DNA from: Antarcticibacterium flavum
Lineage (GTDB): Bacteria; Bacteroidota; Bacteroidia; Flavobacteriales; Flavobacteriaceae
Reading direction: 5' to 3'
DNA length: 64,000 bases
Assembly (NCBI RefSeq): GCF_006159205.1
Contig: NZ_CP040812.1
Location: 434,001 to 498,000 of the forward strand
The notes under the pieces were generated by a model. The model searched no databases and was not told the DNA's origin. It saw only the letters and a program-made list of their open reading frames with translations. This document shows positions 29,601 through 64,000 of this stretch, piece by piece; the stretch's first letter is position 1, and each line of letters begins with the position of its first letter. The position numbers were made by a program, and so were the translations under genes.

Positions 29601-31102
29601 CTCAAACAGTGATCGTTGATGACGTTACTGCTCCTGTAGCTGATGTAGCTGAACTTCCAAACGTAACAGGTGAGTGTTCTGCAACGGTATCTGTTGTTCC
29701 AACTGCCACTGATAATTGTGGTGGAACTATCAACGGAACTACTGAAGATGCTCTTACTTATACTGAGCAGGGAACTTATACTGTAACCTGGACTTTCGAT
29801 GATGGAAATGGAAACACTTCCACTCAGACTCAAACAGTAATTGTAATTGAAATCGACGCCCCTGTTGTAGCTTCGGTTACACAACCAACCTGTGATGCAG
29901 AAACCGGATCTTTCAGCATTACTGCTGTTGAAGGTCTTGAATATAATATAAATGGTGGTTCATACACTGCAACTACTACTTTTGAAGGGCTTTCCGCAGG
30001 TACTTATACTGTAACTGCAAGAACCGCTCAGGGATGTGTTACTGAGGCTGTTTCAGTAACAATAAATGCACAACCTGCAACTCCTGCCGCTCCGGTGGTA
30101 TCCTCTGTGAGTCAGCCTGGATGTGGTGTTGCAACAGGATCATTTTCGGTACAGGTGGTTAACGGACTGGAATATAGTATTGATGGAGAAACGTATACTA
30201 CTTCAGGAAACTTTGAAGGCCTGGAGCCGGGGATCTATTTTGTAGCCGCGATGAATGAAACAGGATGTATGTCGGCTCTTACAGAAGTTGAGATCACTGA
30301 ATCCTCCACTCTTCCTTCTCCTCAGGTTCTTGCTGTGGTTCAACCATCTTGTGAGGTGGCAACGGGATCTTTCACTGTGGATGTAGAAGAGGGTGTTACC
30401 TACAGCATAAATGGTACAGATTACCAGGCTGAAGGTGAATTTACACAACTTGCACCGGGTATCTATTCTTTAACCGCACGAAATGAAGAAGGATGTGTTT
30501 CCCAGGCTGTGGAAGTGACCATTAACACGGTACAGGGCGCGGTTGCTATAGAAACCACTACTGTAGACCTATGTATTGAAGATGAGACCTTTGATCTTTT
30601 TGAACTATTGCTGGGGGATTATGACGATTCAGGTTCCTGGAGCGATCCAACCCAAACTGGTGCCCTTACAGGAAGCAGAATTGATCCTTCCCTGCTGCCG
30701 GTTGGAAACTATACCTTCACCTACAATCTGGGTGGGGAATGTCCTTCAACAACGATGGTTGCTGTGAGCATCAATGATCTTTGTGTGGTTCTTCCCTGTG
30801 GATTCCAGGATATCAAGGATAGCATTTCAAAAGCAGTTACTCCCAATGGAGACGGATATAATGACTTTTTCACGGTAAACCTGAATACAGATTGTGGTTT
30901 CACCTACAATGTAAAAATCTTTAATAGATGGGGGTCACAGGTATACTCTGCAGCAAACTACCAGAATGACTGGAATGGAAATTCAGACAGGTCTGTAACT
31001 TCCTCAAACCAGCTACCTTCAGGTACCTACTTTTATATTCTTGAAATAAATGGAAGTGGTTTTGAGCCAATCCAGGGTTACATCTACTTAGGAACTAAAT
31101 AA
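20609..31102 (+). CDS. Giant T9SS-secreted adhesin with 29 tandem 76-residue repeats
   Basis: 3,497 residues. The N-terminal signal peptide (hydrophobic WILLLVVILGNSVQIYAQ) is followed by a globular region to about residue 390. A DUF11-like segment follows at about 390-490 (EEITYKVEVKNKGTEAIDNAEL). QPTC-type repeats span about 630-790 and an HYR domain about 790-874. Then come 29 tandem repeats (residues 875-3083), each with two cysteines (TGECSATV, TATDNCGG) and an acidic FDDGNGN loop that looks calcium-binding. Three further QPTC...GC repeats of about 75 residues run to about 3310. The C-terminus (AVTPNGDGYNDFF, KIFNRWGSQVYS, LPSGTYFYILE) is a type B type IX secretion sorting domain. It is predicted to be secreted and attached to the surface with help from the following PorP/SprF protein, as SprB is with SprF in gliding flavobacteria. 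Confidence 0.92.
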   Translation: MEKNYFKAIPGSLKNFWILLLVVILGNSVQIYAQVRVDFNQRTSTSTPNKKVYNLNGDFTMIGNTNLTLQNYSTSRTNSNNTMILVDVDNDSNTSNSSMAQLTFSTENDANPICSNVVYAGLYWTGRTANNNSSRSKRTVKFKAPDASYKELTANPDNIRFPGDDNMYVAYVEVTDLVKAGGTGDYWVADMELTTGNGGAIGFYGGWGMVVIYENAQMNLRDVTVFDGYAFVAGNITTNYELPVSGFNTAQSGNVNVKLGFMAGEGDNAISGDYFQIQKKSDNGWLSLSHSANATNNFFNSSIETEGIRNPNLINNTGLDISMFTIPNANNNVIGNNQTSTKFRYGSTQDTYIIFNMVMSVDAYIPKIEGVGSITSINNNPVNAPYSAQPGEEITYKVEVKNKGTEAIDNAELIIPVPFNVEYIPNSVQNNIYFTPAPSPNNLTYNPNLGINGSLVWNIGSLPVSSNTNNILADLTVKFKVTTNCTILKNSVCGDGFTIPITGNLSGKGKITGTTFNNVGVIQGYQKDGACQGQPVSDNLMVKINATSYIADNCQETPDDLVFNYCKSESEIPVTDIKIILPEGSRIYNQFPINEAIEYNVSLPNTVGSTTYYATLKGSSTCYIPFIVEVRDTPVGAIEGTVTQPTCDVATGSFQIADFDSANTYNFNPDVVSISDSGLVTANGGTYNFTVTNTGGCTSAASEDVVVNAQSHTPDSPVVASTLDTTCDLNNGTISIVVMDGVEYSIDGENYQSTGNFDNLSPNNYYISARFINGDCISATTEIEIVEIPDTEDPVLSELEDININVDAGLCGAVVNYEVPIATDNCEGTEVSLTEGLASGGEFPVGISTVTYTATDASGNSVTTSFTVTVTDNEAPVPDVAELPTVTGECSATVSVVPTATDNCGGTINGTTEDALTYTEQGTYTVTWTFDDGNGNTSTQTQTVIVEDVTAPVANVAELPTVTGECSATVAVVPTATDNCGGTINGTTEDALTYTGQGTYTVTWTFDDGNGNITTQEQTVIVEDVTAPVADVAELPTVTGECSATVAVVPTATDNCGGTIEGTTEDALTYNEQGTYTVTWTFDDGNGNITTQEQTVIVDDVTAPVPDVAELPTVTGECSATVAVVPTATDNCGGTINGTTEDALTYTEQGTYTVTWTFDDGNGNTSTQTQTVIVEDVTAPVADVAELPTVTGECSATVAVVPTATDNCGGTINGTTEDALTYTEQGTYIVTWTFDDGNGNTSTQTQTIIVEDVTAPVADVTTLETLTGGCSVTVITVPTATDNCEGTIEGTTNDPLTYEEQGTFTITWTYDDGNGNTSTQTQTVEVNDTSAPVADLNDLPTITAECFVTVDAIPTATDNCSGEKFNGTTSDPLTYNEQGTYTITWTFDDGNGNTSTQTQTVIVEDVTAPVADVAELPTVTGECSATVAAVPTATDNCGGTIEGTTEDALTYNEQGTYTVTWTFDDGNGNITTQEQTVIVEDVTAPVADVAELPTVTGECSATVAVVPTATDNCGGTIEGTTEDALTYNEQGTYTVTWTFDDGNGNITTQEQTVIVDDVTAPVPDVAELPTVTGECSATVAVVPTATDNCGGTINGTTEDALTYTEQGTYTVTWTFDDGNGNITIQEQTVIVDDVTAPVADVAELPSVTGECSATVSVVPTATDNCGGTINGTTEDALTYTEQGTYTVTWTFDDGNGNTSTQTQTVIVEDVTAAVADVTTLETLTGGCSVTVTAVPTATDNCEGTIEGTTNDPLTYEEQGTFTITWTYDDGNGNTSTQTQTVEVNDTSAPVADLNDLPTITAECFVTVDAIPTATDNCSGEKFNGTTSDPLTYNEQGTYTITWTFDDGNGNTSTQTQTVIVEDVTAPVADVAELPTVTGECSATVAVVPTATDNCGGTINGTTEDALIYTEQGTYTVTWTFDDGNGNTSTQTQTVIVEDVTAPVADVAELPSVTGECSATVAVVPTATDNCGGTINGTTEDALTYTEQGTYIVTWTFDDGNGNTSTQTQTVIVEDVTAAVADVTTLETLTGGCSVTVTTVPTATDNCEGTIEGTTNDPLTYEEQGTFTITWTYDDGNGNTSTQTQTVEVNDTSAPVADLNDLPTITAECFVTVDAIPTATDNCSGEKFNGTTSDPLTYNEQGTYTVTWTFDDGNGNTSTQTQTVIVEDVTAPVADVAELPTVTGECSATVAAVPTATDNCGGTIEGTTEDALTYTEQGTYIVTWTFNDGNGNTSTQTQTVIVDDVTAPVADVAELPTVTGECSATVSVVPTATDNCGGTINGTTEDALTYTEQGTYTVTWTFDDGNGNITIQEQTVIVDDVTAPVADVAELPSVTGECSATVSVVPTATDNCGGTINGTTEDALTYTEQGTYTVTWTFDDGNGNTSTQTQTVIVEDVTAAVADVTTLETLTGGCSVTVTAVPTATDNCEGTIEGTTNDPLTYEEQGTFTITWTYDDGNGNTSTQTQTVEVNDTSAPVADLNDLPTITAECFVTVDAIPTATDNCSGEKFNGTTSDPLTYNEQGTYTITWTFDDGNGNTSTQTQTVIVEDVTAPVADVAELPTVTGECSATVAVVPTATDNCGGTINGTTEDALIYTEQGTYTVTWTFDDGNGNTSTQTQTVIVEDVTAPVADVAELPSVTGECSATVAVVPTATDNCGGTINGTTEDALTYTEQGTYIVTWTFDDGNGNTSTQTQTVIVEDVTAAVADVTTLETLTGGCSVTVTTVPTATDNCEGTIEGTTNDPLTYEEQGTFTITWTYDDGNGNTSTQTQTVEVNDTSAPVADLNDLPTITAECFVTVDAIPTATDNCSGEKFNGTTSDPLTYNEQGTYTITWTFDDGNGNTSTQTQTVIVEDVTAPVADVAELPTVTGVCSATVAVVPTATDNCGGTIEGTTEDALTYIEQGTYTVTWTFDDGNGNTSTQTQTVIVEDVTAPVADVAELPTVTGECSATVAAVPTATDNCGGTIEGTTEDALTYTEQGTYIVTWTFDDGNGNTSTQTQTVIVDDVTAPVADVAELPNVTGECSATVSVVPTATDNCGGTINGTTEDALTYTEQGTYTVTWTFDDGNGNTSTQTQTVIVIEIDAPVVASVTQPTCDAETGSFSITAVEGLEYNINGGSYTATTTFEGLSAGTYTVTARTAQGCVTEAVSVTINAQPATPAAPVVSSVSQPGCGVATGSFSVQVVNGLEYSIDGETYTTSGNFEGLEPGIYFVAAMNETGCMSALTEVEITESSTLPSPQVLAVVQPSCEVATGSFTVDVEEGVTYSINGTDYQAEGEFTQLAPGIYSLTARNEEGCVSQAVEVTINTVQGAVAIETTTVDLCIEDETFDLFELLLGDYDDSGSWSDPTQTGALTGSRIDPSLLPVGNYTFTYNLGGECPSTTMVAVSINDLCVVLPCGFQDIKDSISKAVTPNGDGYNDFFTVNLNTDCGFTYNVKIFNRWGSQVYSAANYQNDWNGNSDRSVTSSNQLPSGTYFYILEINGSGFEPIQGYIYLGTK
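25367..27039 (+). repeat. Segmental duplication block, copy 1
   Basis: This 1,673-bp stretch (units 10-17 in part) recurs at 27425-29097, offset 2,058 bp (nine units). No mismatch was seen by eye in the lines compared. The flanking bases differ (C25366 versus T27424; C27040 versus G29098). A recent intragenic duplication or gene-conversion event. Confidence 0.8.
27425..29097 (+). repeat. Segmental duplication block, copy 2
   Basis: Second copy of the 1,673-bp block at 25367-27039. The two blocks are separated by 385 bp. Confidence 0.8.
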
Positions 31103-54688: not shown

Positions 54689-56080
54689 ATGAGTAAATAT
54701 GATATCATTGTTTTAGGAAGTGGTCCCGGTGGATATGTTACTGCCATTCGCGCTTCACAATTAGGTTTTAAAACAGCCGTGGTTGAAAAGGAAAGCCTTG
54801 GAGGTGTTTGTCTTAACTGGGGTTGTATCCCAACCAAAGCACTTCTTAAAAGCGCCCAGGTGTTTGATTACCTAAACCATGCGGCCGATTATGGGTTAAA
54901 AGTTGAAAATGCCGATAAGGATTTTGGTGCAGTTATAAAGCGAAGCCGGAATGTGGCAGATGGAATGAGCAAAGGGGTTCAATTCCTTATGAAAAAAAAT
55001 AAAATTGATGTTATTGAAGGCTTCGGAAAATTAAAATCCGGTAAAAAGATTGCGGTAACAGATAAGAATGATAAAACTACAGAGTACGAAGCCAAGCACA
55101 TAATTGTCGCCACAGGTGCACGTTCCCGTGAATTGCCAAGCCTAAAGCAGGATGGTAAGAAAGTAATAGGATACCGCGAGGCTATGACCCTTGATAAGCA
55201 GCCGGAATCTATGATCGTTGTAGGATCTGGTGCTATTGGGGTGGAATTTGCCCATTTTTATAACGCGATGGGGACAGATGTTACAGTCGTGGAATTCCTA
55301 CCAAACCTTGTGCCTCTTGAAGATGAGGAAATCTCAAAACAATTTGAGCGCAGTGTGAAAAAAGCCGGAATAAAAGTGATGACAAACTCCTCTGTAGAGA
55401 GCGTTGACACTTCCGGAAAAAAGATCAAGGCAAAGGTGAAGACCAAAAAAGGAGAAGAAACCCTTGAGGCAGATATTGTACTTTCTGCTGTTGGGATCAA
55501 AACAAACATTGAAAATATAGGCCTGGAAGACCTGGGCATCAAGACAGATAAGGATAAGATCGTAGTTAACGAGTGGTACCAGACCAATGTAGATGGCATT
55601 TACGCCATTGGTGATGTTGTTGCTGGTCCTGCACTTGCTCACGTTGCATCTGCTGAAGGTATTACCTGTGTAGAAAAGATCGCCGGTATGCACGTGGAAC
55701 CAATCGACTACGGTAATATCCCGGGATGTACCTATGCAACTCCTGAAATAGCATCGGTTGGAATGACTGAAAAGCAGGCAAAAGAAGCAGGCTATGAATT
55801 GAAAATTGGAAAGTTCCCATTCTCAGCTTCAGGAAAAGCAAAAGCTGCCGGAACGCCAGATGGTTTTGTGAAAGTGATCTTTGACGCGAAATATGGAGAA
55901 TGGTTAGGTTGCCACATGATTGGTGCCGGAGTGACAGATATGATCGCTGAGGCTGTTCTTGGAAGAAAACTTGAAACTACTGGGCACGAAGTCCTTAAAA
56001 CCATCCACCCACACCCAACTATGAGTGAAGCGGTGATGGAAGCTGTAGCCGCCGCTTATGACGAGGTGATCCACTTGTAG
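54689..56080 (+). CDS. lpdA: Dihydrolipoyl dehydrogenase
   Basis: 463 residues. FAD/NAD disulfide oxidoreductase (E3) of 2-oxoacid dehydrogenase complexes. FAD-binding IIVLGSGPGGYVTAIRA at the N-terminus, redox-active disulfide GGVCLNWGCIPTKALL, NAD-binding VVGSGAIGVEFAHFY, YAIGDVV, and the C-terminal dimerisation/active-site HPHPTMSE. Its TAG stop is also the first three bases of a heptanucleotide array. Confidence 0.95.
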   Translation: MSKYDIIVLGSGPGGYVTAIRASQLGFKTAVVEKESLGGVCLNWGCIPTKALLKSAQVFDYLNHAADYGLKVENADKDFGAVIKRSRNVADGMSKGVQFLMKKNKIDVIEGFGKLKSGKKIAVTDKNDKTTEYEAKHIIVATGARSRELPSLKQDGKKVIGYREAMTLDKQPESMIVVGSGAIGVEFAHFYNAMGTDVTVVEFLPNLVPLEDEEISKQFERSVKKAGIKVMTNSSVESVDTSGKKIKAKVKTKKGEETLEADIVLSAVGIKTNIENIGLEDLGIKTDKDKIVVNEWYQTNVDGIYAIGDVVAGPALAHVASAEGITCVEKIAGMHVEPIDYGNIPGCTYATPEIASVGMTEKQAKEAGYELKIGKFPFSASGKAKAAGTPDGFVKVIFDAKYGEWLGCHMIGAGVTDMIAEAVLGRKLETTGHEVLKTIHPHPTMSEAVMEAVAAAYDEVIHL

Positions 56081-56145
56081 TCGTTAGTCGTTAGTCTTTA
56101 GTCTTTAGTCTTTAGTCTTTAGTCTTTAGTCTTTAGTCTTTAGTC
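56078..56145 (+). repeat. Heptanucleotide array TAGTCTT, about 9.7 units
   Basis: Two TAGTCGT units followed by seven TAGTCTT and a partial unit. It begins exactly at the lpdA stop codon. Confidence 0.95.
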
Positions 56146-56156
56146 AAAAAAAAATT

Positions 56157-56196
56157 ATCCCTGCTGGAAGTAACATTTTAGCGGGGATTTTTTTTC
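56157..56196 (+). terminator. Terminator downstream of lpdA
   Basis: ATCCCTGCT / AGCGGGGAT stem (one G-U pair), 14-nt loop, and a long T-run. It lies between two heptamer arrays. Confidence 0.75.
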
Positions 56197-56258
56197 TGTT
56201 TTCCGTTTTCCGTTTTCTGTTTTCCGTTCTTTGTTCTCTTTTCTCTGCTCTCTGTACT
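56196..56258 (+). repeat. Degenerate heptanucleotide array (C-TGTTTT type), 9 units
   Basis: In strict 7-nt register: CTGTTTT, CCGTTTT, CCGTTTT, CTGTTTT, CCGTTCT, TTGTTCT, CTTTTCT, CTGCTCT, CTGTACT. Confidence 0.85.
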
Positions 56259-56277
56259 ACTAGTGTTCAGGGTTAAT

Positions 56278-56312
56278 TGTTTGGTGTTTGGTGTTTGGTG
56301 TTTGGTGTTTGG
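56278..56312 (+). repeat. Heptanucleotide array TGTTTGG, 5 units
   Basis: Five identical TGTTTGG units, then a T-run and the dispersed word GCCACGAATGCACTAATG (56325-56342). Confidence 0.93.
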
Positions 56313-56379
56313 TTTTTTTTTTAGCCACGAATGCACTAATGTTTTTCGGTTATTTTCTATGTACCATTTTTAAATTCGG

Positions 56380-56456
56380 GAATTTGGTGCCTGGAATTTG
56401 GAATTTGGTGCTTGGTGCCTGTAATTTGGAATTTGGTGCTTGGAATTTGGAAATTG
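56380..56456 (+). repeat. Heptanucleotide array mixing GAATTTG and GTGCYTG, 11 units
   Basis: Order: GAATTTG, GTGCCTG, GAATTTG, GAATTTG, GTGCTTG, GTGCCTG, TAATTTG, GAATTTG, GTGCTTG, GAATTTG, GAAATTG. All units keep the 7-nt register although two unrelated words alternate. Confidence 0.9.
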
Positions 56457-56483
56457 TTGGTGCTTGTAGTCTCTTTTTCTAGC

Positions 56484-56627
56484 CCTGCCAGGTTTCTCCT
56501 TTGCAGGATTGACCTATAAAAGGAGGAATAAGTTTTCAGGAAAATTCAACCTGGTAGGTCTTTCTCGCAATTGAGATCCTTACCCAATGGAATTCGAACA
56601 AACTTCACAGGTTTTTTCCAACCTGTG
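56484..56627. repeat. AACCTG-type short dyads
   Basis: Several short inverted repeats built on the same core: CCTGCCAGG (56484-56492), ACCTGGTAGGT (56549-56559), and CACAGGTT-6 nt-AACCTGTG (56606-56627, a perfect 8-bp stem). Otherwise this gap holds no gene. Confidence 0.6.
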
Positions 56628-56696
56628 AGGTTTTCTTAGAAAGACAATTTTTCTTGCTGTAAATTATTTTTCTGAGGAGCTTTGAAAGAATTCGAT

Positions 56697-57422
56697 TTAA
56701 ACAGGAATTAGATCAGAATACCAAAACCTGGTATCCCAACTTTTCTCCTTATCTGCAAAACAATTATCATCTTCTTTTTCTGAAGACTGATAAGTTCTTT
56801 GCACCTTCTCCCCTATTTCAAATTTGACAGGCTCTTTGAAGATTGGTCCATCATAGACGAACGTGTGAAATTCGCCATTTTCCCCGCAAGGATCTACCCC
56901 TTCGGGTAATGAATCAATAAACTCCCGGTCGATGATCCTTCCGCAGAAAGATTCATCCAGATATTTCGCATTTACACATACCGTAATCGCTTTAAACCCG
57001 GCGTCGAGAAAATCTTGCATAAGTTGCCGGGTATCTCGCTTCCACAACGGGAATACTGCTGTGATGTCTTCTTTTTCAAGCTGTTCCTCCCGGTAAACCT
57101 TAAGATCCTCCAGGAAAATATCTCCAAAGACAGAATGAGTAAATCCCTCCTTTTTCAAAAGTTTTACCTGCTCTTGCATGGTTTGATTATAGGTGCTCAT
57201 AGAAACATTTCCTTTCAGGAATATTTGATGTAGAGGAAGCCCTATACTCCTTGCCTGCATCTCAAGAAGTTGCTGCCTTACTCCATGCATTGAAATGCGC
57301 CCAATCTCCCTATTTATGGTGGTAACGAGTTTCTCAACTTTGACAGCCTGGTTTTTCTGAAGGGTGTATAAAGCAAAAGCAGCATCCTTACCACTACTCC
57401 AGTTAAGATATGCTTTTTTCAT
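56697..57422 (-). CDS. Diphthine--ammonia ligase-like (adenine nucleotide alpha-hydrolase superfamily)
   Basis: 241 residues. PP-loop-type ATP site LNWSSGKDAAFALYTL at the N-terminus, then SMHGVRQQLLEMQA, GDIFLEDLKVYRE, and the C-terminal DPCGENGEFHTFVYDGPIF, which is diagnostic of the Dph6/MJ0570 family. In eukaryotes and archaea Dph6 amidates diphthine on EF-2. Bacteria lack diphthamide, so the bacterial substrate is different and unknown. It overlaps aroQ by 1 nt. Confidence 0.88.
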   Translation of the reverse strand: MKKAYLNWSSGKDAAFALYTLQKNQAVKVEKLVTTINREIGRISMHGVRQQLLEMQARSIGLPLHQIFLKGNVSMSTYNQTMQEQVKLLKKEGFTHSVFGDIFLEDLKVYREEQLEKEDITAVFPLWKRDTRQLMQDFLDAGFKAITVCVNAKYLDESFCGRIIDREFIDSLPEGVDPCGENGEFHTFVYDGPIFKEPVKFEIGEKVQRTYQSSEKEDDNCFADKEKSWDTRFWYSDLIPV

Positions 57423-57841
57423 TATTCTCCAATAAAACTATGTATGGCAAGATCATAACTCTGCAACCCGAAGCCAATGATCACTCCTTTGGCATTGGGT
57501 GAAACGTAAGAGGTATGCCGAAAGCTTTCCCTGGAAAAGGTATTGGATATATGTACTTCAACCACCGGGGTTTCTATTGCTTTAATTGCGTCCCCAATAC
57601 CCACAGAAGTGTGAGTATATGCGGCTGCATTGAGGATAATCCCGTCAAAGTCCTTATTTGCCTGTTGTAGTTGATCTATAAGTTCTCCTTCTATATTACT
57701 TTGGAAATAAGAAAGTTCCACTTCCCTGAATTTGAATTGAAGGTCGGCAAAATAATCCTCGAAGCTTTTATTACCGTATGTTTCTGGCTCCCGGGTTCCC
57801 AATAAATTAAGATTCGGGCCATTTATTATAATGATTTTCAT
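57422..57841 (-). CDS. aroQ: Type II 3-dehydroquinate dehydratase
   Basis: 139 residues, a dodecameric small dehydratase of the shikimate pathway. NGPNLNLLGTREPETYG carries the lid Arg and Tyr, FDGIILNAAAYTHTSVGIGDA the substrate loop, VEVHISNTFSRESFRHTSY the catalytic His region. A conserved neighbour of xerD in Flavobacteriia, here separated from it by three outer-membrane protein genes. Confidence 0.95.
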   Translation of the reverse strand: MKIIIINGPNLNLLGTREPETYGNKSFEDYFADLQFKFREVELSYFQSNIEGELIDQLQQANKDFDGIILNAAAYTHTSVGIGDAIKAIETPVVEVHISNTFSRESFRHTSYVSPNAKGVIIGFGLQSYDLAIHSFIGE

Positions 57842-57867
57842 AGGCTAAAGATATTTAAATAAGGCGC

Positions 57868-57903
57868 AGGAAAAAAGCGGAAGTTATGGCCTCCGCTTTT
57901 TTC
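57868..57903. terminator. Terminator between aroQ and the barrel genes
   Basis: AAAAAAGCGGA(AG)...(CC)TCCGCTTTTTT hairpin, symmetric. On the minus strand it lies about 60 nt after the stop of the barrel gene at 57963. Confidence 0.75.
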
Positions 57904-57962
57904 CGCATTAAAATGAAGTAAGAGTTGTTTAAAAATTTTTGTTCAGTTCATCTCAGTTAAGA

Positions 57963-58427
57963 TCATAGTCCAAATTCTACTCCAAGATTTACCGAGGAAA
58001 TATTCCCGGGATCCATACTTATACCTTGATAAGAAGCGATCAAACCAAGGCCTAAAACTCTAAACCCTAATTGAGGCCTGTAATAAAATCCGCCGTCATT
58101 GCCATCATTAAGTCCTACAGCATACCCCAGGTCAAGTCCTACTGTAATTCCAGGAAAGTTCAATCTTCCCGCAACTGCTGCAGGGAGAAATTGCATATCG
58201 TCAAAATCGTCATCCCCAAAAAAGTGGGAATACCCTACCATAGGGCCTATATCCAGGATTGGAATTGCATTGAACATATATGCCAGATCACCTCCCAATT
58301 GAAAAGAATAATCTGAAGCATCACCAACAGGTATTCCGGCATTCACTCCCAGCTTTAAATGCCCCTGACTGTAAGCAGAAGTGACACCTATCATAACCAC
58401 TACCAGAGTAATAAATAATTTTTTCAT
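57963..58427 (-). CDS. Outer-membrane beta-barrel protein
   Basis: 154 residues with a signal peptide (LFITLVVVMIGVTSAYSQ). The mature part has eight short amphipathic strands with glycine- and Asp-rich turns (HFFGDDDFDDMQF, GLNDGNDGGFYY) and a C-terminal aromatic/leucine strand (VNLGVEFGL), like a small OmpX/OmpA-type barrel. Function unknown. Confidence 0.82.
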   Translation of the reverse strand: MKKLFITLVVVMIGVTSAYSQGHLKLGVNAGIPVGDASDYSFQLGGDLAYMFNAIPILDIGPMVGYSHFFGDDDFDDMQFLPAAVAGRLNFPGITVGLDLGYAVGLNDGNDGGFYYRPQLGFRVLGLGLIASYQGISMDPGNISSVNLGVEFGL

Positions 58428-58558
58428 GTTTTCCTTATTTAATTGGTTGACTACTTAAATGTAAGGATTTTTGAATTCAAAATCTACATAATGCATTAGC
58501 ATTCAATATTTTAACCTCTTTTTAATCTGTATTAAAGAAAACCCATCGGGCAGGTGAC

Positions 58559-59164
58559 CTAATATTTATATCCTATTGACAATTGTATGAGTGAGTTGCG
58601 GTAATCAACATCCTCATAAATATTGCTGAAACCCCTTAGGTATCTGGCCTGCACAAAAATTCCCAGGGGAAGCTCATAGCCCAATCCGCCGGCCACACCC
58701 AGGTCAAATTTTTCAGTTTTATTGGTAATATCAAGGGTAGAAGCATTCTCACTACCCGTCGCCTCGGCTTTGGAATCAATGAGAAAGGAAAAGCGTGGCC
58801 CCGCTTCAATACTTAGTCCCGGCACAATGAAATATTTCAGCATTACGGGAAGGGAAATATAATCTACTTTAAAAGTGACCTCCCGGCCCCTTAATTCAGC
58901 CAACTCATGAGAAGAAGACCTTGCTCCCTGTGAGGAATAAATAATCTCAGGCTGTAAGGCAAATTGGGGGGCCACAAGAATCTCACCTAATATTCCCAAA
59001 TGAATATCGCTTCTGTCTTTAAAGTTACCCTGTATGGCATCCTTACCTGCAAAGCCGGAAATATTAACCCCGCCTTTTAAACCAACTTTAAAATATTCCT
59101 GCGCCTGTAACTGTAAACCCAACAGGCATAATGTAAAAATTAAAAAGATTCTTTTTATCATCAT
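58559..59164 (-). CDS. Porin-family outer-membrane beta-barrel protein
   Basis: 201 residues (start at the first or second Met) with a signal peptide (IFLIFTLCLLGLQLQAQ). The sequence FKVGLKGGVNISGFAGKDA, FALQPEIIYSSQGARSS, DYISLPVMLKYFIVPGLSIEAGP and GLGYELPLGIFVQARYLRGFSNI is the PorT-like OMP_b-brl_2 pattern. A paralogue of the next gene at 59284. Confidence 0.88.
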   Translation of the reverse strand: MMIKRIFLIFTLCLLGLQLQAQEYFKVGLKGGVNISGFAGKDAIQGNFKDRSDIHLGILGEILVAPQFALQPEIIYSSQGARSSSHELAELRGREVTFKVDYISLPVMLKYFIVPGLSIEAGPRFSFLIDSKAEATGSENASTLDITNKTEKFDLGVAGGLGYELPLGIFVQARYLRGFSNIYEDVDYRNSLIQLSIGYKY

Positions 59165-59283
59165 AGAATTTTTCCTGATTTATAATTATAAAATTAAAAG
59201 GATTTGATTGCCTTTGAAAGGGCCGGAAACAAAAAAGGTGTAAGTTCTCACTTACACCTTGTTGTTGATTAGTTATTCTTTAT

Positions 59284-59913
59284 CTAGAACATGAATCCAA
59301 TTCCTGCTTGAATTACAGAATGTTTTGCATCTGCTCCAGAAAATATATTGTTTCTAAAGCTGTCATCATAAATATCAGTTAAACCAATATTATAACGTCC
59401 ATTTACGAAGAATCCTCCTCTAAACTTATATGAAGCACCAAGGGCCACACTAAAGTCCACTGTATTAAACTGCTCTTCATCCAGAGAAACGGAAAATTCA
59501 TCATTAGTTGATGAAGGATTGCCATCGATTTCACTATTTACTAGGAAACCTACTTGTGGACCGGCTTCCAATGCCAATCCTTCTGTAAGATAAACTTTTG
59601 CAATTACAGGTACATTAATATAATCCAATTGATATTCTATATCATTGGCATTATTCCTGTCTGCAATGTCATACCCCTGCCCGGAATACAGTACCTCGGG
59701 CTGTATAGAAAATCGTTCGCTTAATGGAATTTCTGCAATTAACCCTAAATGAAAAGATGTTCTGCCATCTGGATCGTTAAAAGCATTCACTCCATCACCG
59801 GAGAAGGTAGAGAAGTTCACACCACCTTTTGCTCCAAACATTACATATTCCTGTGCCTGCATTGTAGTGAAACCAAACAATGCTATTGCAATTAATAAAA
59901 GTGACTTTTTCAT
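59284..59913 (-). CDS. Porin-family outer-membrane beta-barrel protein
   Basis: 209 residues with a signal peptide (LLLIAIALFGFTTMQAQ). Same strand order as the gene at 58559: MFGAKGGVNFSTFSGDG, FSIQPEVLYSGQGYDIA, DYINVPVIAKVYLTEGLALEAGPQ, FFVNGRYNIGLTDIY. Probably a tandem duplicate. Divergent from xerD. Confidence 0.88.
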   Translation of the reverse strand: MKKSLLLIAIALFGFTTMQAQEYVMFGAKGGVNFSTFSGDGVNAFNDPDGRTSFHLGLIAEIPLSERFSIQPEVLYSGQGYDIADRNNANDIEYQLDYINVPVIAKVYLTEGLALEAGPQVGFLVNSEIDGNPSSTNDEFSVSLDEEQFNTVDFSVALGASYKFRGGFFVNGRYNIGLTDIYDDSFRNNIFSGADAKHSVIQAGIGFMF

Positions 59914-60026
59914 ATCTTTCTGTTTTAAAGTTCGGGGACAAATTTAGGCTTACATTTGTTAAGAAAAACTTACACAAGCCTAAAGTATTACTAATACTGG
60001 AAAGAGGATTGTTGATAACTCATATA

Positions 60027-60929
60027 ATGAACTGGTATCAAGCACTAAAGGATTTTAAGGAGCACCTGCAGATAGAGCGGGGCCTTTCAACGAATTCTAT
60101 TGAAAGTTATTCCTTGGACATTTCCAAACTTATTAACTATTTGGAACAAAATGATGTAGCCGTTTCTCCTACAAAAATTGAAAGAGAGGACCTTCAAAAT
60201 TTTATTTATGAGGTTGCAAAATTGCTGAATGCCCGCTCACAATCCCGTTTAATTTCAGGATTAAAAAGTTTTTTCAACTACCTGATTTTTGAAGGTTACA
60301 GGGATGCCAACCCTATGGAACTTGTGGAATCCCCAAAAATAGGAAGAAAGTTACCAGATACACTTTCTCTTCCTGAAATTGACAGGCTAATAGCAGCCAT
60401 AGACCTTTCAACTAATGAAGGCGAACGCAACCGCGCGATCATAGAGACCCTCTACGGCTGCGGATTAAGGGTTTCTGAAGTGATCAATCTTAGGTTAAGT
60501 GATCTTTATTTTAAAGAAGGTTTTATCAAGGTTACCGGTAAGGGAAATAAAGAACGCTTCGTTCCGGTTGGGGAAATAACACAACAGTATATTGAAGAAT
60601 ATGTTTCAAACACCCGTAGAAATGTCCCGGTAAAACCCACTTTTACTGATATTGTCTTTCTCAACAGGCGCGGGAGAATGCTAACCCGCGCTATGATCTT
60701 TACCATCGTTAAAAACCTTGCGCTTGTGGCAAACCTTCAAAAGAATATAAGTCCGCACACCTTCAGGCACTCATTTGCAACCCATCTTCTTGAAAACGGG
60801 GCCGATCTAAGGTCTATTCAACAAATGCTGGGGCACGAAAGTATCACCACCACCGAGATCTATATGCACGTGGACAAAAGTCATTTGCGCGAGGTAATAA
60901 GCAATTATCATCCACGTAGCAATTATTAA
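60027..60929 (+). CDS. xerD: Site-specific tyrosine recombinase XerD
   Basis: 300 residues from MNWYQALKDFKEHLQIERGLS. An upstream in-frame ATG (59880) would overlap the divergent barrel gene and adds non-conserved sequence. The N-terminal SAM-like domain spans residues 1-100. The catalytic domain has the Arg in YGCGLRVSEVINL, then HTFRHSFATHLLENGAD (H..R), GHESITTTEIYMHVD with the second His and the nucleophile Tyr. It resolves chromosome dimers at dif with XerC. A host housekeeping gene, not an element integrase. Confidence 0.93.
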   Translation: MNWYQALKDFKEHLQIERGLSTNSIESYSLDISKLINYLEQNDVAVSPTKIEREDLQNFIYEVAKLLNARSQSRLISGLKSFFNYLIFEGYRDANPMELVESPKIGRKLPDTLSLPEIDRLIAAIDLSTNEGERNRAIIETLYGCGLRVSEVINLRLSDLYFKEGFIKVTGKGNKERFVPVGEITQQYIEEYVSNTRRNVPVKPTFTDIVFLNRRGRMLTRAMIFTIVKNLALVANLQKNISPHTFRHSFATHLLENGADLRSIQQMLGHESITTTEIYMHVDKSHLREVISNYHPRSNY

Positions 60930-61009
60930 ATTCATGCTAAATGGGCCGGGTTGCTTTAGATTATACTTCCTGTGCCTTACCTTAAGGGAAAATAGAATAA
61001 TAGAAAAGC

Positions 61010-61975
61010 ATGAAGACATTAAATTTTAGAAACGGCGATGAAATGCCTGCAATTGGGCTGGGAACCTGGAAATCTGGAAAAGGAGAAGTTGGTAAGGCCG
61101 TAAAGGCGGCAGTCCAAAGCGGCTACAGGCACATCGATTGTGCGGCCACTTATGGAAACGAAGCTGAAATTGGAGAAGCCCTTGCAGAAGTTTTTAAGGA
61201 GGGTAAGGTGAAAAGAGAGGACTTGTGGATCACTTCCAAACTGTGGAATAATGCCCATAAAAAGGAAGATGTGATCCCTGCTTTAAAGAAGACTTTAAAA
61301 GATCTTCAATTAGATTACCTCGACCTCTACCTAATTCACTGGCCGGTAGCATTTAAGCCAGAGGTTGCCGCACCTCAAAAGGATGATGATTATCTTTCCC
61401 TGGAAGAGGCACTTATAATAGAGACCTGGAATATGATGCTAAAGGCAAAGGAGCATGGTTTGGTAAAGCATACAGGAGTATCCAATTTTAGTATAGCAAA
61501 ACTGGAGGACCTTATGGAGGAAACCAATGATATTCCTGAAATGAACCAGGTAGAGATCCATCCATACCTTCAACAGGATGAATTGCTGGAATTTTGCAGC
61601 AAACATGATATACACCTCACCGGCTATTCACCACTTGGCAGTGGTGACCGGCCCGATGCCATGAAAGCTTCCAACGAACCTTCCCTGCTGGAGAACAAGG
61701 TGATTACCGGAATCGCCAAAAGACACGGCGCAACTCCCGGACAGGTATTAATAAAATGGCACCTCATTAGAGGAACTGCCGTAATTCCTAAATCTACGAA
61801 TCCCGAAAGAATACAGGAGAATATTGAAAGTACAGGAGTCAACCTCAATGAAAGTGATTTGCAGGAGATCTCCCAACTGGACAAGCATTTTCGCTATGTA
61901 AACGGGGAGTTTTTTGTAACAAAAGGCAATCCTTATTCCAATATTTTTGATGAAGATGATTATAGGGAGAAGTAG
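61010..61975 (+). CDS. Aldo/keto reductase
   Basis: 321 residues. NADPH-dependent carbonyl reductase of the (beta/alpha)8 family: GLGTWKSGKGEVGKAV, HIDCAATYGNEAEIGEAL (Asp and catalytic Tyr), WITSKLWNNAH (Lys), LIHWPVAFKP (His), NQVEIHPYLQQ and the NADP-binding AVIPKSTNPERIQEN. Substrate unknown. The stop codon TAG is followed by TCGTTAG, the same junction as at the lpdA stop. Confidence 0.92.
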   Translation: MKTLNFRNGDEMPAIGLGTWKSGKGEVGKAVKAAVQSGYRHIDCAATYGNEAEIGEALAEVFKEGKVKREDLWITSKLWNNAHKKEDVIPALKKTLKDLQLDYLDLYLIHWPVAFKPEVAAPQKDDDYLSLEEALIIETWNMMLKAKEHGLVKHTGVSNFSIAKLEDLMEETNDIPEMNQVEIHPYLQQDELLEFCSKHDIHLTGYSPLGSGDRPDAMKASNEPSLLENKVITGIAKRHGATPGQVLIKWHLIRGTAVIPKSTNPERIQENIESTGVNLNESDLQEISQLDKHFRYVNGEFFVTKGNPYSNIFDEDDYREK

Positions 61976-61985
61976 TCGTTAGAGG

Positions 61986-62027
61986 GTTTTCTGTTTACCG
62001 TTTGCCGTTTACGGTTGTAGGTTGTCT
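61986..62027 (+). repeat. Degenerate heptanucleotide array GTTTNCC type, 6 units
   Basis: In register: GTTTTCT, GTTTACC, GTTTGCC, GTTTACG, GTTGTAG, GTTGTCT. Located just after the aldo/keto reductase stop. Confidence 0.8.
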
Positions 62028-62037
62028 CATCAGTTTC

Positions 62038-62330
62038 GTCATCCTGAGACCCCAATAAAATTTTTTTATTAGCGTGAGGTGATGACGTTTTCCCCGGCCT
62101 ACGAAAGTTTATCGTAAAATTTGAAATGAGTGGGGCGTTAGAATTTTAGGCTGTCTGAGCGCAACGGATTAATCTCGCATGAATTCATTTTCCCGCGAGT
62201 ACCTAAAATTTAGCCACCGAATGATAAATTTAGATAAGCTTTCGTAAGCCTAGACTTTTTTGCTTCTTTTTCTTGCAACCGACGACCAGAGGGAGAGGAT
62301 TGCAGCAAAAAAGAAGGAGTGGTCTTATGA
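62038..62330. repeat. Multi-hairpin dispersed element, copy 2
   Basis: Shares its length with 35006-35340, with substitutions and small indels. The long arms GGCCTACGAAAGTTTATC and AAGCTTTCGTAAGCC, and GAATTTTAGG / CCTAAAATTTAGCC, are kept. Homology extends to AATACGTCAATGGTAACTTG (62389 onward). Confidence 0.8.
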
Positions 62331-62465
62331 AATGAAGATAACCTCGACACCGTTTCTTCCAGATTCCATAGAATTATATCTAATAAAATACGTCAATGGT
62401 AACTTGTTTCAGGATCTAATGGAGTTAAATGTTCAGCACCTCGCGTACACATTCCTTCTCTTTTT

Positions 62466-62500
62466 ACCTGGTTTCTGGTTCTTGTTTCCTGGTTCTTAGT
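62466..62500 (+). repeat. Heptanucleotide array (TCCTGGT/TCTTGTT words), 5 units
   Basis: ACCTGGT, TTCTGGT, TCTTGTT, TCCTGGT, TCTTAGT, then GCCACGAATGCACGAATG at 62515. Confidence 0.85.
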
Positions 62501-62729
62501 TTGGATTGGGTGTGAGCCACGAATGCACGAATGTTTTCTATTTGTTAGTGAATAAAAAGTGAGGGAATGATGAGGACAAATATTTTTATCTGCAGCGTTA
62601 GTAGAAGGCAAAATGTATTTTCAAACTCTGTTTTACCAAAACCTATACTCGCACCGTCATCCTGAACTCCTTTCAGGATCTAATGGCGTTGAGTGTTCAG
62701 CGCTTCGCGTACACATCCCTTCTCTTTTT

Positions 62730-62764
62730 TCCTGGTTCCTGGTTCTTGTTTCCTGGTTCTTAGT
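62730..62764 (+). repeat. Heptanucleotide array, second copy of the TCCTGGT type, 5 units
   Basis: TCCTGGT, TCCTGGT, TCTTGTT, TCCTGGT, TCTTAGT, again followed by GCCACGAATGCACTAAT (62781). Array and tag sequence are duplicated together relative to 62466. Confidence 0.85.
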
Positions 62765-62901
62765 TGGGATTGAGTGTGGGCCACGAATGCACTAATATTT
62801 TTTTAGTTATGCAGTATTCCCAGTAACATCATCCTGAACTCGTTTCAGTATCTAATATAATTTAGTATTCAGCATTTAGCGTTACATGCATCCCGTCTTT
62901 T

Positions 62902-62992
62902 CTCTCTTCTCTCTTCTCTCTTCTCTTGTTTCTTGTTTCTTGTTTCTTGTTTCTTGTTTCTTGTTTCTTGCTTCTTGTTTCTTGTTTCTTGT
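62902..62992 (+). repeat. Heptanucleotide array CTCTCTT then TTCTTGT, 13 units
   Basis: Three CTCTCTT, one hybrid CTCTTGT, then nine TTCTTGT (one ending in C). The word changes without losing the 7-nt register. Confidence 0.93.
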
Positions 62993-63011
62993 TCTTTAAA
63001 AATAACATACT

Positions 63012-63044
63012 AAAAAAGCCTTTGATCAATTCAAAGGCTTTTTT
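63012..63044 (-). terminator. Terminator of rny
   Basis: AAAAAAGCCTTTGA-TCAAT-TCAAAGGCTTTTTT, a near-perfect stem with flanking A/T runs, about 54 nt after the rny stop. Confidence 0.88.
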
Positions 63045-63097
63045 AAGTATTTCTGAAGCCTGTTTAGTTAAGGATTCAGATGTGAAATTCTAAAAGA

Positions 63098-64000
63098 TTA
63101 CTTGGCTATGTTAACCGCTCTTGTTTCCCTTATTACTGTTACTTTAACCTGGCCGGGATAGGTCATATCTGTCTGGATCTTTTGAGAAATTTCAAAAGAA
63201 AGGTTTGCAGCCTTATCATCGGTTACCTTTTCACTTTCCACTATTACCCGCAGTTCCCTACCAGCCTGTATGGCATAGGCTTTCTTCACCCCGCCAAATC
63301 CAAAGGCGATATCCTCCAGGTCTTTAAGTCGCTGAATGTAGGAATCAAGCACCTGTCTTCTTGCACCGGGTCTTGCACCGCTTATGGCGTCACAAACCTG
63401 TACAATTGGAGATAACAGGGAATTCATTTCAATCTCATCGTGGTGAGCCCCTATGGCATTGCATACTTCAGGTTTTTCACCATACTTCTCTGCCCACTGC
63501 ATACCAAGTAGCGCGTGAGGCATTTCAGTCTCTGTATCCGGCACTTTTCCTATATCGTGTAGCAACCCTGCTCTTTTTGCCAGTTTTGGGTTTAAACCAA
63601 GTTCTGCCGCCATTACACCACATAGTTTTGCAACTTCCCTTGAGTGCTGTAGCAGGTTTTGCCCATAAGAAGAACGGTATTTCATTCTACCCACCGTCTT
63701 TATCAATTCTGGATGTAAACCATGAATCCCTAAGTCTATAACAGTACGTTTCCCTATATCTATGATCTCCTCATCGATTTGTTTCCTGGTCTTCTTAACC
63801 ACTTCTTCAATCCTGGCAGGATGAATCCTTCCATCGGTTACTAGCTTATGCAGGGATAATCTCGCAACTTCCCTACGAACCGTGTCAAAGCAGGAAAGAA
63901 TGATGGCCTCGGGGTGTCATCTACTATGATTTCCACACCGGTAGCAGCCTCAATTGCTCTAATGTTCCTTCCTTCCCTTCCAATGATCCTTCCTTTAACA
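63098..64000 (-). CDS. rny: Ribonuclease Y, C-terminal part, one frameshift
   Basis: The gene runs off the window end, so the N-terminal membrane anchor and coiled coil are missing. At the edge the KH domain is visible ([30 protein letters not shown]). The frame breaks at GGGG 63911-63914 (plus strand). One added base gives [24 protein letters not shown]. The HD phosphohydrolase domain ([33 protein letters not shown]) and the C-terminal end [14 protein letters not shown] are intact. RNase Y starts mRNA decay at the membrane. Confidence 0.92.

What the first reader, a model, noticed from the sequence alone, without database searches (positions are those of the whole stretch)
56078..62992. Intergenic arrays built from different words but always with a 7-nt period
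Eight tandem arrays (56078, 56196, 56278, 56380, 61986, 62466, 62730, 62902) use different units (TAGTCTT, CCGTTTT, TGTTTGG, GAATTTG/GTGCTTG, GTTTACC, TCCTGGT, CTCTCTT, TTCTTGT), yet every one keeps a strict heptamer register even where the word changes mid-array. All are pyrimidine- or G/T-rich on the plus strand. Simple slippage would not force one period on unrelated words. A shared mechanism is suggested, such as a templating or copying enzyme, or a protein with a 7-nt footprint. Cyanobacterial STRR heptanucleotides are the nearest known analogue I can name.
Basis: partly seen in the sequence, partly recalled or inferred. Interest (0 to 1): 0.75.

Follow-up and report, generated by a model that had tools for sequence, protein, structure and literature searches.

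The report
Seven-letter DNA repeats between genes
Between its genes this bacterium carries many short tandem repeats that almost all have a seven-letter unit; they belong to a known but unexplained class of bacterial repeats, and their wording and direction relative to neighbouring genes follow rules that could help explain how such repeats grow.

Summary
The arrays are real. In an evenly spaced 1.6 Mb sample (37%) of the 4.35 Mb genome, 105 exact tandem runs have lag 7, 23 have lag 14, and every other lag from 1 to 20 has 0-3. Lag-7 scanning finds 181 arrays, 174 of them intergenic.

The words are not unrelated: 12 cores cover 180 of 181 arrays, and several arrays pass from one core to another in register. 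Neighbouring units match more often than shuffled ones, the mark of copying 1-2 whole units.

A polarity also emerged: the G/T-richer strand tends to run from the flanking genes into the gap (114 of 162 arrays; gap-wise p about 1e-4). It was only partly replicated elsewhere, but published Xanthomonas/Nostoc heptads are laid out alike.

Best reading: a many-word form of the known bacterial intergenic heptanucleotide repeats, its period inherited from old seeds and kept by unit-wise slippage. Period 7 leads in other Flavobacteriaceae, but octads exist. Reverse transcriptases do not track the arrays. Function, the preference for 7 and the polarity remain unexplained.

The parts
54689..56080 (+). 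lpdA-like gene (dihydrolipoyl dehydrogenase); its TAG stop codon is the first unit of array 1
   Evidence: ORF and translation; orthologues in 14 genus genomes examined at the 3' end; the name rests on the protein sequence and recalled family knowledge, not on a family search
56078..56145 (+). Array 1: TAGTCGT then TAGTCTT units (TTAG core), between the lpdA stop codon and a terminator-like hairpin
   Evidence: TRF score 122; sequence
56157..56195 (+). Terminator-like hairpin (ATCCCTGCT / AGCGGGGAT) followed by a T run, between arrays 1 and 2
   Evidence: read directly from the sequence; not scored by a tool
56192..56255 (+). Array 2: GTTTTCC/GTTTTCT units drifting into TCTGTTC-type units
   Evidence: TRF scores 60 and 52; in-register change of word seen
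56278..56317 (+). Array 3: TGTTTGG units
   Evidence: TRF score 73
56384..56456 (+). Array 4: mixed GGAATTT / GGTGCTT-type units
   Evidence: TRF rows of period 7, 21 and 28
61993..62016 (+). Array 5: weak GTTTACC-type array after the aldo/keto reductase-like ORF 61010-61975
   Evidence: TRF score 34, 82% matches
62468..62502 (+). Array 6: CTGGTTT / GTTTCTGGTTCTTA, with indels
   Evidence: TRF scores 31 and 48
62729..62759 (+). Array 7: TTCCTGG-type units, in a second copy of the stretch around array 6
   Evidence: TRF score 48; likeness of 62410-62533 and 62670-62798 seen by eye
62896..62993 (+). Array 8: TCTCTTC units passing in register into TCTTGTT units
   Evidence: TRF scores 55 and 133
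63012..63044 (.). Symmetric terminator-like hairpin (AAAAAAGCCTTTG / CAAAGGCTTTTTT) between array 8 and the convergent ORF 63098-63802
   Evidence: read directly from the sequence; not scored by a tool

Best explanation
These are intergenic heptanucleotide tandem repeats of a kind already known in bacteria, in an unusually rich many-word form. Most likely they grow and shrink by copying 1-2 whole units at a time (replication slippage or misaligned recombination) on seeds that already have a 7-nt period. Point mutations change the word while the register stays, and related arrays come to lie in many gaps. One period with many words is then mainly inheritance of register within a set of word families, not a fresh 7-nt choice at each site. 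Shown here: the excess of period 7, the small set of cores, neighbour-unit copying, in-register word changes, and no clear excess of isolated 7-nt duplications of 7-8 matching bases. Inferred: that slippage is the copying step and that the families share ancestors. Not explained: why 7 beats 6 and 8 in the first place, how arrays reach new gaps, and why the G/T-richer strand runs from the flanking genes into the gap.
For: Neighbouring units identical in 281 of 627 pairs against 191 expected, 0 of 1000 shuffles as high; distance 2: 227 of 557 against 171; gone at distance 4 (70 arrays). Twelve cores cover 180 of 181 arrays. In-register passages between cores, e.g. genome positions 800992, 2013413, 3053369. 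Within the genus the lpdA 3' site has two TTAGACG units (G001), a long TTAGGCG array (G003) and TAGTCGT/TAGTCTT (G000): one TTAG-N-CG seed, different expansion. Runs of 7-8 matching bases at lag 7 away from arrays: 29 in 80 named loci (26-33 at lags 6, 8-12) and 44 in G000 (22-44 at the same lags). MutS domains are present in all 16 genus genomes, so loss of mismatch repair is not needed.
Against: The purity of period 7 in this genome (105 against 0-1 at lags 5, 6, 8 and 9) is more than generic slippage predicts unless the arrays share few founders, and common descent was not proved. The word network uses short motif matches and has no shuffled control. The polarity is not predicted by plain slippage. 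In G000 away from arrays, runs of at least 6 at lag 7 are somewhat raised (174 against 53-122 at other lags). Pooled by family, variation sits on few unit positions, which plain slippage also does not predict, though this nearly vanishes when each variant is counted once per array.
Confidence: 0.55

Rival explanations
1. Selected binding platform: a DNA- or RNA-binding protein with a footprint of about 7 nt binds a core in each unit, and arrays are kept at gene edges for regulation or to mark transcription boundaries.
For: Arrays sit at gene edges (24 within 10 nt of a gene 3' end, 8 within 10 nt of a 5' end) with a polarity relative to genes. Pooled variation is concentrated outside a core of 3-6 nt, and TTAG-N-CG is kept behind lpdA in three species of the genus.
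Against: About 12 different cores in one genome would need many specificities. Counting distinct variants once per array leaves little support for a protected core in G000 (p=0.18 overall). Same-genus genomes lack or nearly lack arrays. PMC4692102 reports that its authors could not identify a regulatory role for the Xanthomonas/Nostoc heptads.
Confidence: 0.2
2. Polymerase geometry: the stretch of DNA held by the replicative polymerase makes 7-nt slippage intrinsically favoured in all bacteria (hypothesis of the 2007 survey as cited in PMC4692102).
For: Period 7 leads well beyond this genome: TTAG-core arrays in 70 of 149 Flavobacteriaceae genomes at period 7, against 9 at period 6 and 21 at period 8; 80 named loci give 18 lag-7 gap runs of at least 11 against 0-5 at other lags.
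Against: Octads with CTTWG or TTAG cores exist in the same family; density differs greatly within one genus; it does not predict the polarity.
Confidence: 0.12
3. Repeat-adding or end-extending process: an enzyme extends DNA outward from gene edges or break ends in steps of 7 nt, with the G/T-rich strand as the growing 3' strand, and the ends are then joined, giving facing arrays.
For: G/T-richer strand points into the gap from both sides; in the 14 gaps with both signs, adjacent changes are 15 plus-to-minus and 2 minus-to-plus. The effect holds without TTAGTC (p=0.00075), without GGTTGT (p=0.001) and for distinct strings only (p=0.0001). Published G-rich heptads show the same layout.
Against: RVT_1 genes do not track arrays. 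Neighbour copying is simpler as slippage. Polarity was not seen in G116 (9 arrays in gaps, p=0.32) and is only suggestive in named and same-genus loci (p=0.06). It is weak in co-directional gaps (40 to 30). No template RNA was looked for.
Confidence: 0.08
4. Dispersed cassettes: heptads ride on mobile or recombining intergenic elements, and their layout is that of the carrier.
For: Some dispersed intergenic 14-mers lie near arrays far above the 9.6% background (AACTCCGTGGTTAA 10 of 10, CTCCGTGAAACTCC 9 of 10, ACGAATGCACGAAT 11 of 20). Arrays 6 and 7 of the window sit in two similar stretches. An identical 62-nt array occurs at 538696 and 1787539.
Against: 174 of 181 array strings are distinct; other dispersed 14-mers are not near arrays (for example 0 of 38 and 2 of 28); no transposase was searched for.
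Confidence: 0.05

Closest known systems
GGGAATC heptads of Xanthomonas and GGGGA(C/T)T heptads of Nostoc (PMC4692102; term passages and sections 10 and 16 read)
   Different: One word type per genome, G-rich and able to form G-quadruplexes. Here there are 12 cores, mostly G/T-rich without G runs of three or more, in Bacteroidota.
TAACTGA direct repeats of Beggiatoaceae, Cyanobacteria and five Bacteroidetes (PMC4679880; outline with abstract and sections 8 and 12 read)
   Same: Intergenic heptads at gene edges; reported in Gramella forsetii with other heptamer repeats in the same gaps. One array in the sampled genome is of this word (4022557), and G116 has one.
   Different: There one word dominates and sits mostly just upstream of start codons; here many words, and gene 3' ends are at least as common.
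Long heptameric SSRs over-represented in many bacterial genomes (2007 survey, cited in PMC4692102; the survey itself was not held, and was not read)
   Same: Excess of period 7 among simple repeats.
   Different: As cited, a general survey; whether it treats word drift or polarity could not be checked.
Cyanobacterial STRR heptanucleotides
   Same: Tandem heptanucleotides in a genome, three words in Calothrix as cited.
   Different: Other phylum; their words were not compared here.

Membership tests
Bacterial intergenic heptanucleotide tandem repeats (heptameric SSR class) | Tandem 7-nt units in clear excess over other periods | tested here: met
   105 runs at lag 7 against 0-3 at other lags except 14, which has 23
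Bacterial intergenic heptanucleotide tandem repeats (heptameric SSR class) | Mainly intergenic | tested here: met
   174 of 181 arrays more than 90% intergenic, 3 inside genes, with simple gene calls of my own
Bacterial intergenic heptanucleotide tandem repeats (heptameric SSR class) | Length change between close strains | not testable with these tools
   only one genome per species is held; between species the lpdA site differs
Xanthomonas/Nostoc G-rich heptads | GGGANTN or GGGGAYT words | tested here: not met
   none of the 48 canonical words of the 181 arrays is GGGAATC or GGGGAYT
Xanthomonas/Nostoc G-rich heptads | G-rich strand pointing away from genes; convergent pairs | tested here: met
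   with the G/T-richer strand in place of the G-rich one: 114 of 162 arrays, 15 against 2 sign changes
TAACTGA repeats | TAACTGA as the dominant word | tested here: not met
   1 of 181 arrays (canonical AGTTATC; position 4022557)
Cyanobacterial STRR | Sharing the STRR words | not tested
   the word list was not fetched
Telomerase-like or reverse-transcriptase-made repeats | A reverse transcriptase present where arrays are present | tested here: not met
   RVT_1 in 5 of 16 genus genomes; absent in G011, which has arrays; 16 matches in G009, which has few in the 60 kb seen
Telomerase-like or reverse-transcriptase-made repeats | A template RNA carrying the repeat | not tested
   no search made beyond Rfam on the window, which found only RNase P

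The most novel reading that the evidence does not exclude
Heptad arrays in Bacteroidota, Xanthomonas and Nostoc are products of one general process that extends DNA outward from gene edges or break ends with a fixed step of about 7 nt, leaving the G- or G/T-rich strand pointing into the gap from both sides and so writing facing pairs of arrays: an unrecognised repeat-adding or end-processing activity in bacteria.
Probability: 0.08. Interest if true: 0.9.

Novelty: new variant of a known kind. Interest (0 to 1): 0.5.

Why it matters
The excess of period 7 among bacterial repeats is in print without a tested cause (PMC4692102). This genome is a rich case: 181 arrays in 1.6 Mb, 12 cores, and same-genus species that have far fewer in the stretches seen or lack the tested word. 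That makes the question testable by comparing close relatives and by following array length in culture. The polarity, seen here with G/T-rich words and in print for G-rich heptads of two other phyla, is a constraint that a full mechanism must meet. Even if the arrays are only slippage products, they should be fast-changing strain markers (inference).

Tried and rejected
Unrelated words each forced to 7: rejected as the main view. The 12 cores were chosen by eye from the list, and one motif match assigns an array, so the grouping is generous.

Independent origin of three lpdA arrays: my first reading, where loci on the minus strand were printed from the wrong end. One search, with the loci turned, showed that G000, G001 and G003 share TTAG-N-CG; a common seed is likelier. 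The Aequorivita viscosa array (TAGATGC) stays undecided.

Conserved core with free positions: strong when pooled (chi-square p down to 3e-37, but cells are not independent), weak when distinct variants count once per array (all G000 p=0.18, GGTTGT 0.012, AGTGGA 0.017, GTTT 0.18, TTAGTC 0.66, TCTTG 0.72, GTTTGG 0.99, one array per family 0.83-0.89, other genomes 0.002). Kept only as a lead.

Replication-strand bias: GGTTGT 10 leading to 23 lagging, TCTTG 6 to 16, AGTGGA 2 to 11 after merging; none survives correction for 12 families. Origin and terminus come from cumulative GC skew only.

Background composition as cause of polarity: rejected; with arrays masked, sense-strand G+T near gene ends is 0.45-0.53.

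RRM-type protein binding in sense transcripts: not general; when the nearest gene end is a 5' end, the named core strand is antisense in 56 of 70 arrays. PMC11697453 (search listing and passages read): no 'tandem', 'repeats' or 'heptamer' in its main text.

Mismatch-repair loss: not needed; G000 has three MutS_V matches, one in an 879-aa open frame.

Rfam: one match in the window, RNase P.

Rows dropped: one search uses 162 of 181 arrays (the rest lack a gene on one side, lie in a called gene, or have exactly half G+T). One search uses 70 arrays, those with a usable register. One search drops arrays under 5 units or with fewer than 2 or more than 12 variants. One search uses 26 of 30 and 22 of 25 arrays. 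G010 and G011 are not in the lpdA comparison.
Full report
What was checked. The window is bases 434001-498000 of a 4,353,683-base single-contig genome. The nearest named record returned for its LpdA protein is Zunongwangia atlantica at 90% identity, in a list where records very near the window's genome may be left out. Full-length orthologues in unnamed same-genus genomes are 91-94% identical. The eight arrays are present as described. They touch two gaps between convergent ORFs, 56081-56696 and 61976-63097. The first starts on the TAG stop codon of lpdA and ends before a terminator-like hairpin. One array has indels and one is weak, so the register is good but not perfect.

Period. I took 80 evenly spaced stretches of 20 kb, 1.6 Mb or 37% of the genome; two of them overlap the window. 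Exact runs of at least 14 number 105 at lag 7, 23 at lag 14, 3 at lag 15, 1 each at lags 4, 8, 10 and 13, and none at the other lags from 1 to 20. Order-2 Markov controls gave none at lag 7. A tolerant lag-7 scan finds 181 arrays, median length 37, longest 212. With my own simple gene calls, 174 are more than 90% intergenic and 3 lie inside genes. Convergent gaps hold 62 of the 167 arrays with both flanks known, but only 57 of 343 kb of gap sequence.

Words. The commonest word of each array falls into 48 rotation-and-strand classes. Twelve cores that I chose after seeing the list cover 180 of 181 arrays: GGTTGT 56, TCTTG 24, GTTT(T/A)C 21, TTAGTC 20, AGTGGA 16, GTTTGG 12, TTTGGAA 8, TGAGTA 7, TCTCTTC 5, TCTAG 4, TCTCACA 4, TAACTC 3. 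Single arrays pass from one core to another in register: TCTAG to TCTCTTC to TCTTG at 800992, GTTTGG to GTTTNC at 2013413, TTAGGAG to GTTGTAG at 3053369. Linking motif groups seen together in at least two arrays gives one connected set, but that network uses short matches and has no shuffled control. Of the 20 TTAGTC arrays, 7 begin on or overlap a stop codon.

Growth. In 70 arrays with at least six units and two unit types, neighbouring units are identical in 281 of 627 pairs against 191 after shuffling units within arrays (none of 1000 shuffles as high). At distance two the figures are 227 of 557 against 171, and at distance four the excess is gone. This is copying of one or two whole units. 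Away from arrays there is no excess of runs of 7-8 matching bases at lag 7: 29 in 80 named loci (26-33 at lags 6 and 8-12) and 44 in G000 (22-44 at those lags). Runs of 9 or more at lag 7 were excluded by design. At a threshold of 6 bases G000 does show a raised count, 174 against 53-122 at other lags, which may be worn array remains. Growth thus seems to work mainly on arrays that already exist.

One orthologous site. Behind the lpdA stop codon G001 has two TTAGACG units, G003 a long TTAGGCG array, G000 TAGTCGT then TAGTCTT; the other 11 genus genomes of the 14 compared show no heptad array in the 167 bases printed after the stop codon. Aequorivita viscosa has TAGATGC repeats from the stop codon on, with an assembly gap of N inside. 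Within the genus one inherited TTAG-N-CG seed with different expansion is the simplest reading.

Polarity. Each array was labelled by the strand richer in G+T. In left halves of gaps 72 are plus and 23 minus; in right halves 42 are minus and 25 plus. Flipping signs gap by gap gives p=5e-5 or 1e-4 with another seed. Fourteen of 70 gaps hold both signs; adjacent changes are 15 plus-to-minus and 2 minus-to-plus. One vote per gap half gives 61 consistent to 31. Divergent gaps score 27 to 5, convergent gaps 47 to 13, co-directional gaps only 40 to 30. The effect survives removal of TTAGTC (p=0.00075), of GGTTGT (0.001), of both (0.02) or of TCTTG/TCTCTTC (5e-5), and use of distinct strings only (1e-4). 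Masked background composition does not explain it. Replication elsewhere is partial: 16 to 6, p=0.004, in stretches chosen for TTAG matches, where the tie of TAG to stop codons may help; 15 to 11, p=0.06, in 80 named plus 16 same-genus loci, some of them chosen for matches; p=0.32 in G116, with 9 arrays in gaps. [quoted passage not shown] In Flexibacter-type F. litoralis, TAACTGA sets lie forward before start codons (12 of 14 sets) and one set lies reversed right after a stop codon (PMC4679880), which agrees in sign; reading 'F.' as Flexibacter is recalled.

Breadth. TTAG-core arrays of four units occur in 70 of 149 Flavobacteriaceae genomes at period 7, 9 of 149 at period 6 and 21 of 149 at period 8; several period-8 hits are really period-4 TTAG runs. 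The built-in control, the pattern read backwards (GATT core), also finds period-7 arrays in many of these genomes, so the period, not the TTAG core, is what stands out. Octads with a CTTWG core occur in 10 of 149, and G038 has its own AT-rich octads. Across the phylum 38 of 118 genomes have the period-7 pattern. In 80 named loci (1.45 Mb) gap runs of at least 11 number 18 at lag 7 and 0-5 at each other lag from 3 to 16. In 400 kb of G116, runs of at least 14 number 4 at lag 7, 3 at lag 14 and 0-1 elsewhere. Within the genus the 21-mer of TTCTTGT occurs in 3 of 16 genomes. In 60 kb each, G001 has no lag-7 run of at least 12 and G009 one; G003 and G011 stretches were partly chosen for matches, so their density is uncertain.

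Genes. RVT_1 occurs in 5 of 16 genus genomes (G000 6 matches, G001 1, G003 2, G006 1, G009 16) and not in G011, which has arrays. MutS_V occurs in 16 of 16. Neither tracks the arrays. Other candidate enzymes were not searched.

Unit anatomy. Pooled by family, departures within arrays fall on few positions; for GTTGT plus two positions, over 285 units, 2 departures at the first three positions and 65 and 49 at the last two. Counting each variant once per array removes most of this, so shared ancestry can produce it. I treat it as a lead.

Verdict and literature. The finding is real and belongs to a known class. Searches of the held open-access library gave PMC4692102, PMC4679880 and PMC6749651 as papers bearing on bacterial heptamer repeats; in what I saw of their listings I found no description of a many-word heptad genome in Flavobacteriaceae with this polarity. 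PMC4679880 does mention other heptamer repeats in Gramella forsetii and Elizabethkingia gaps. PMC6749651 was seen in passages only, PMC4060949 likewise. Most subscription papers are not in the library, and the 2007 survey was not held. I hold unit-wise slippage on inherited heptad seeds most likely (0.55). The preference for 7 and the polarity remain open.

Noticed in passing
20609-31102: A 3497-aa ORF with a 228-bp coding tandem repeat, about 29 copies (23231-29845); looks like a large repetitive surface protein.
   Followed up: no
62410-62533 and 62670-62798: Two similar stretches in the same gap, each with a heptad array and a GCCACGAATGCAC motif; GCCACGAATGCA occurs 22 times in the 1.6 Mb sample, 13 of them near an array.
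   Followed up: partly
G000 sample, e.g. L031-L110: Dispersed 14-mers AACTCCGTGGTTAA and CTCCGTGAAACTCC lie near heptad arrays in 10 of 10 and 9 of 10 cases against a 9.6% background.
   Followed up: no
G000 array clusters: Cores seem to follow an order on the strand: TTAGTC before GTTTNC in 6 of 6 same-strand pairs, before GTTTGG in 6 of 6, GTTTGG before TCTTG in 4 of 4. Small numbers.
   Followed up: no
G141, G093, G089, G145: Octad arrays with a CTTTG or CTTAG core and three very variable positions: a period-8 counterpart in the same family.
   Followed up: partly
G273: Arrays of GTTTAG plus one freely varying base at many sites in a genome of another family of the same class.
   Followed up: no
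G009: Sixteen nearly identical reverse-transcriptase matches, perhaps a multiplied group II intron.
   Followed up: no
G011: lpdA and MutS matches are broken or in short open frames, which suggests an error-rich assembly or gene decay.
   Followed up: no
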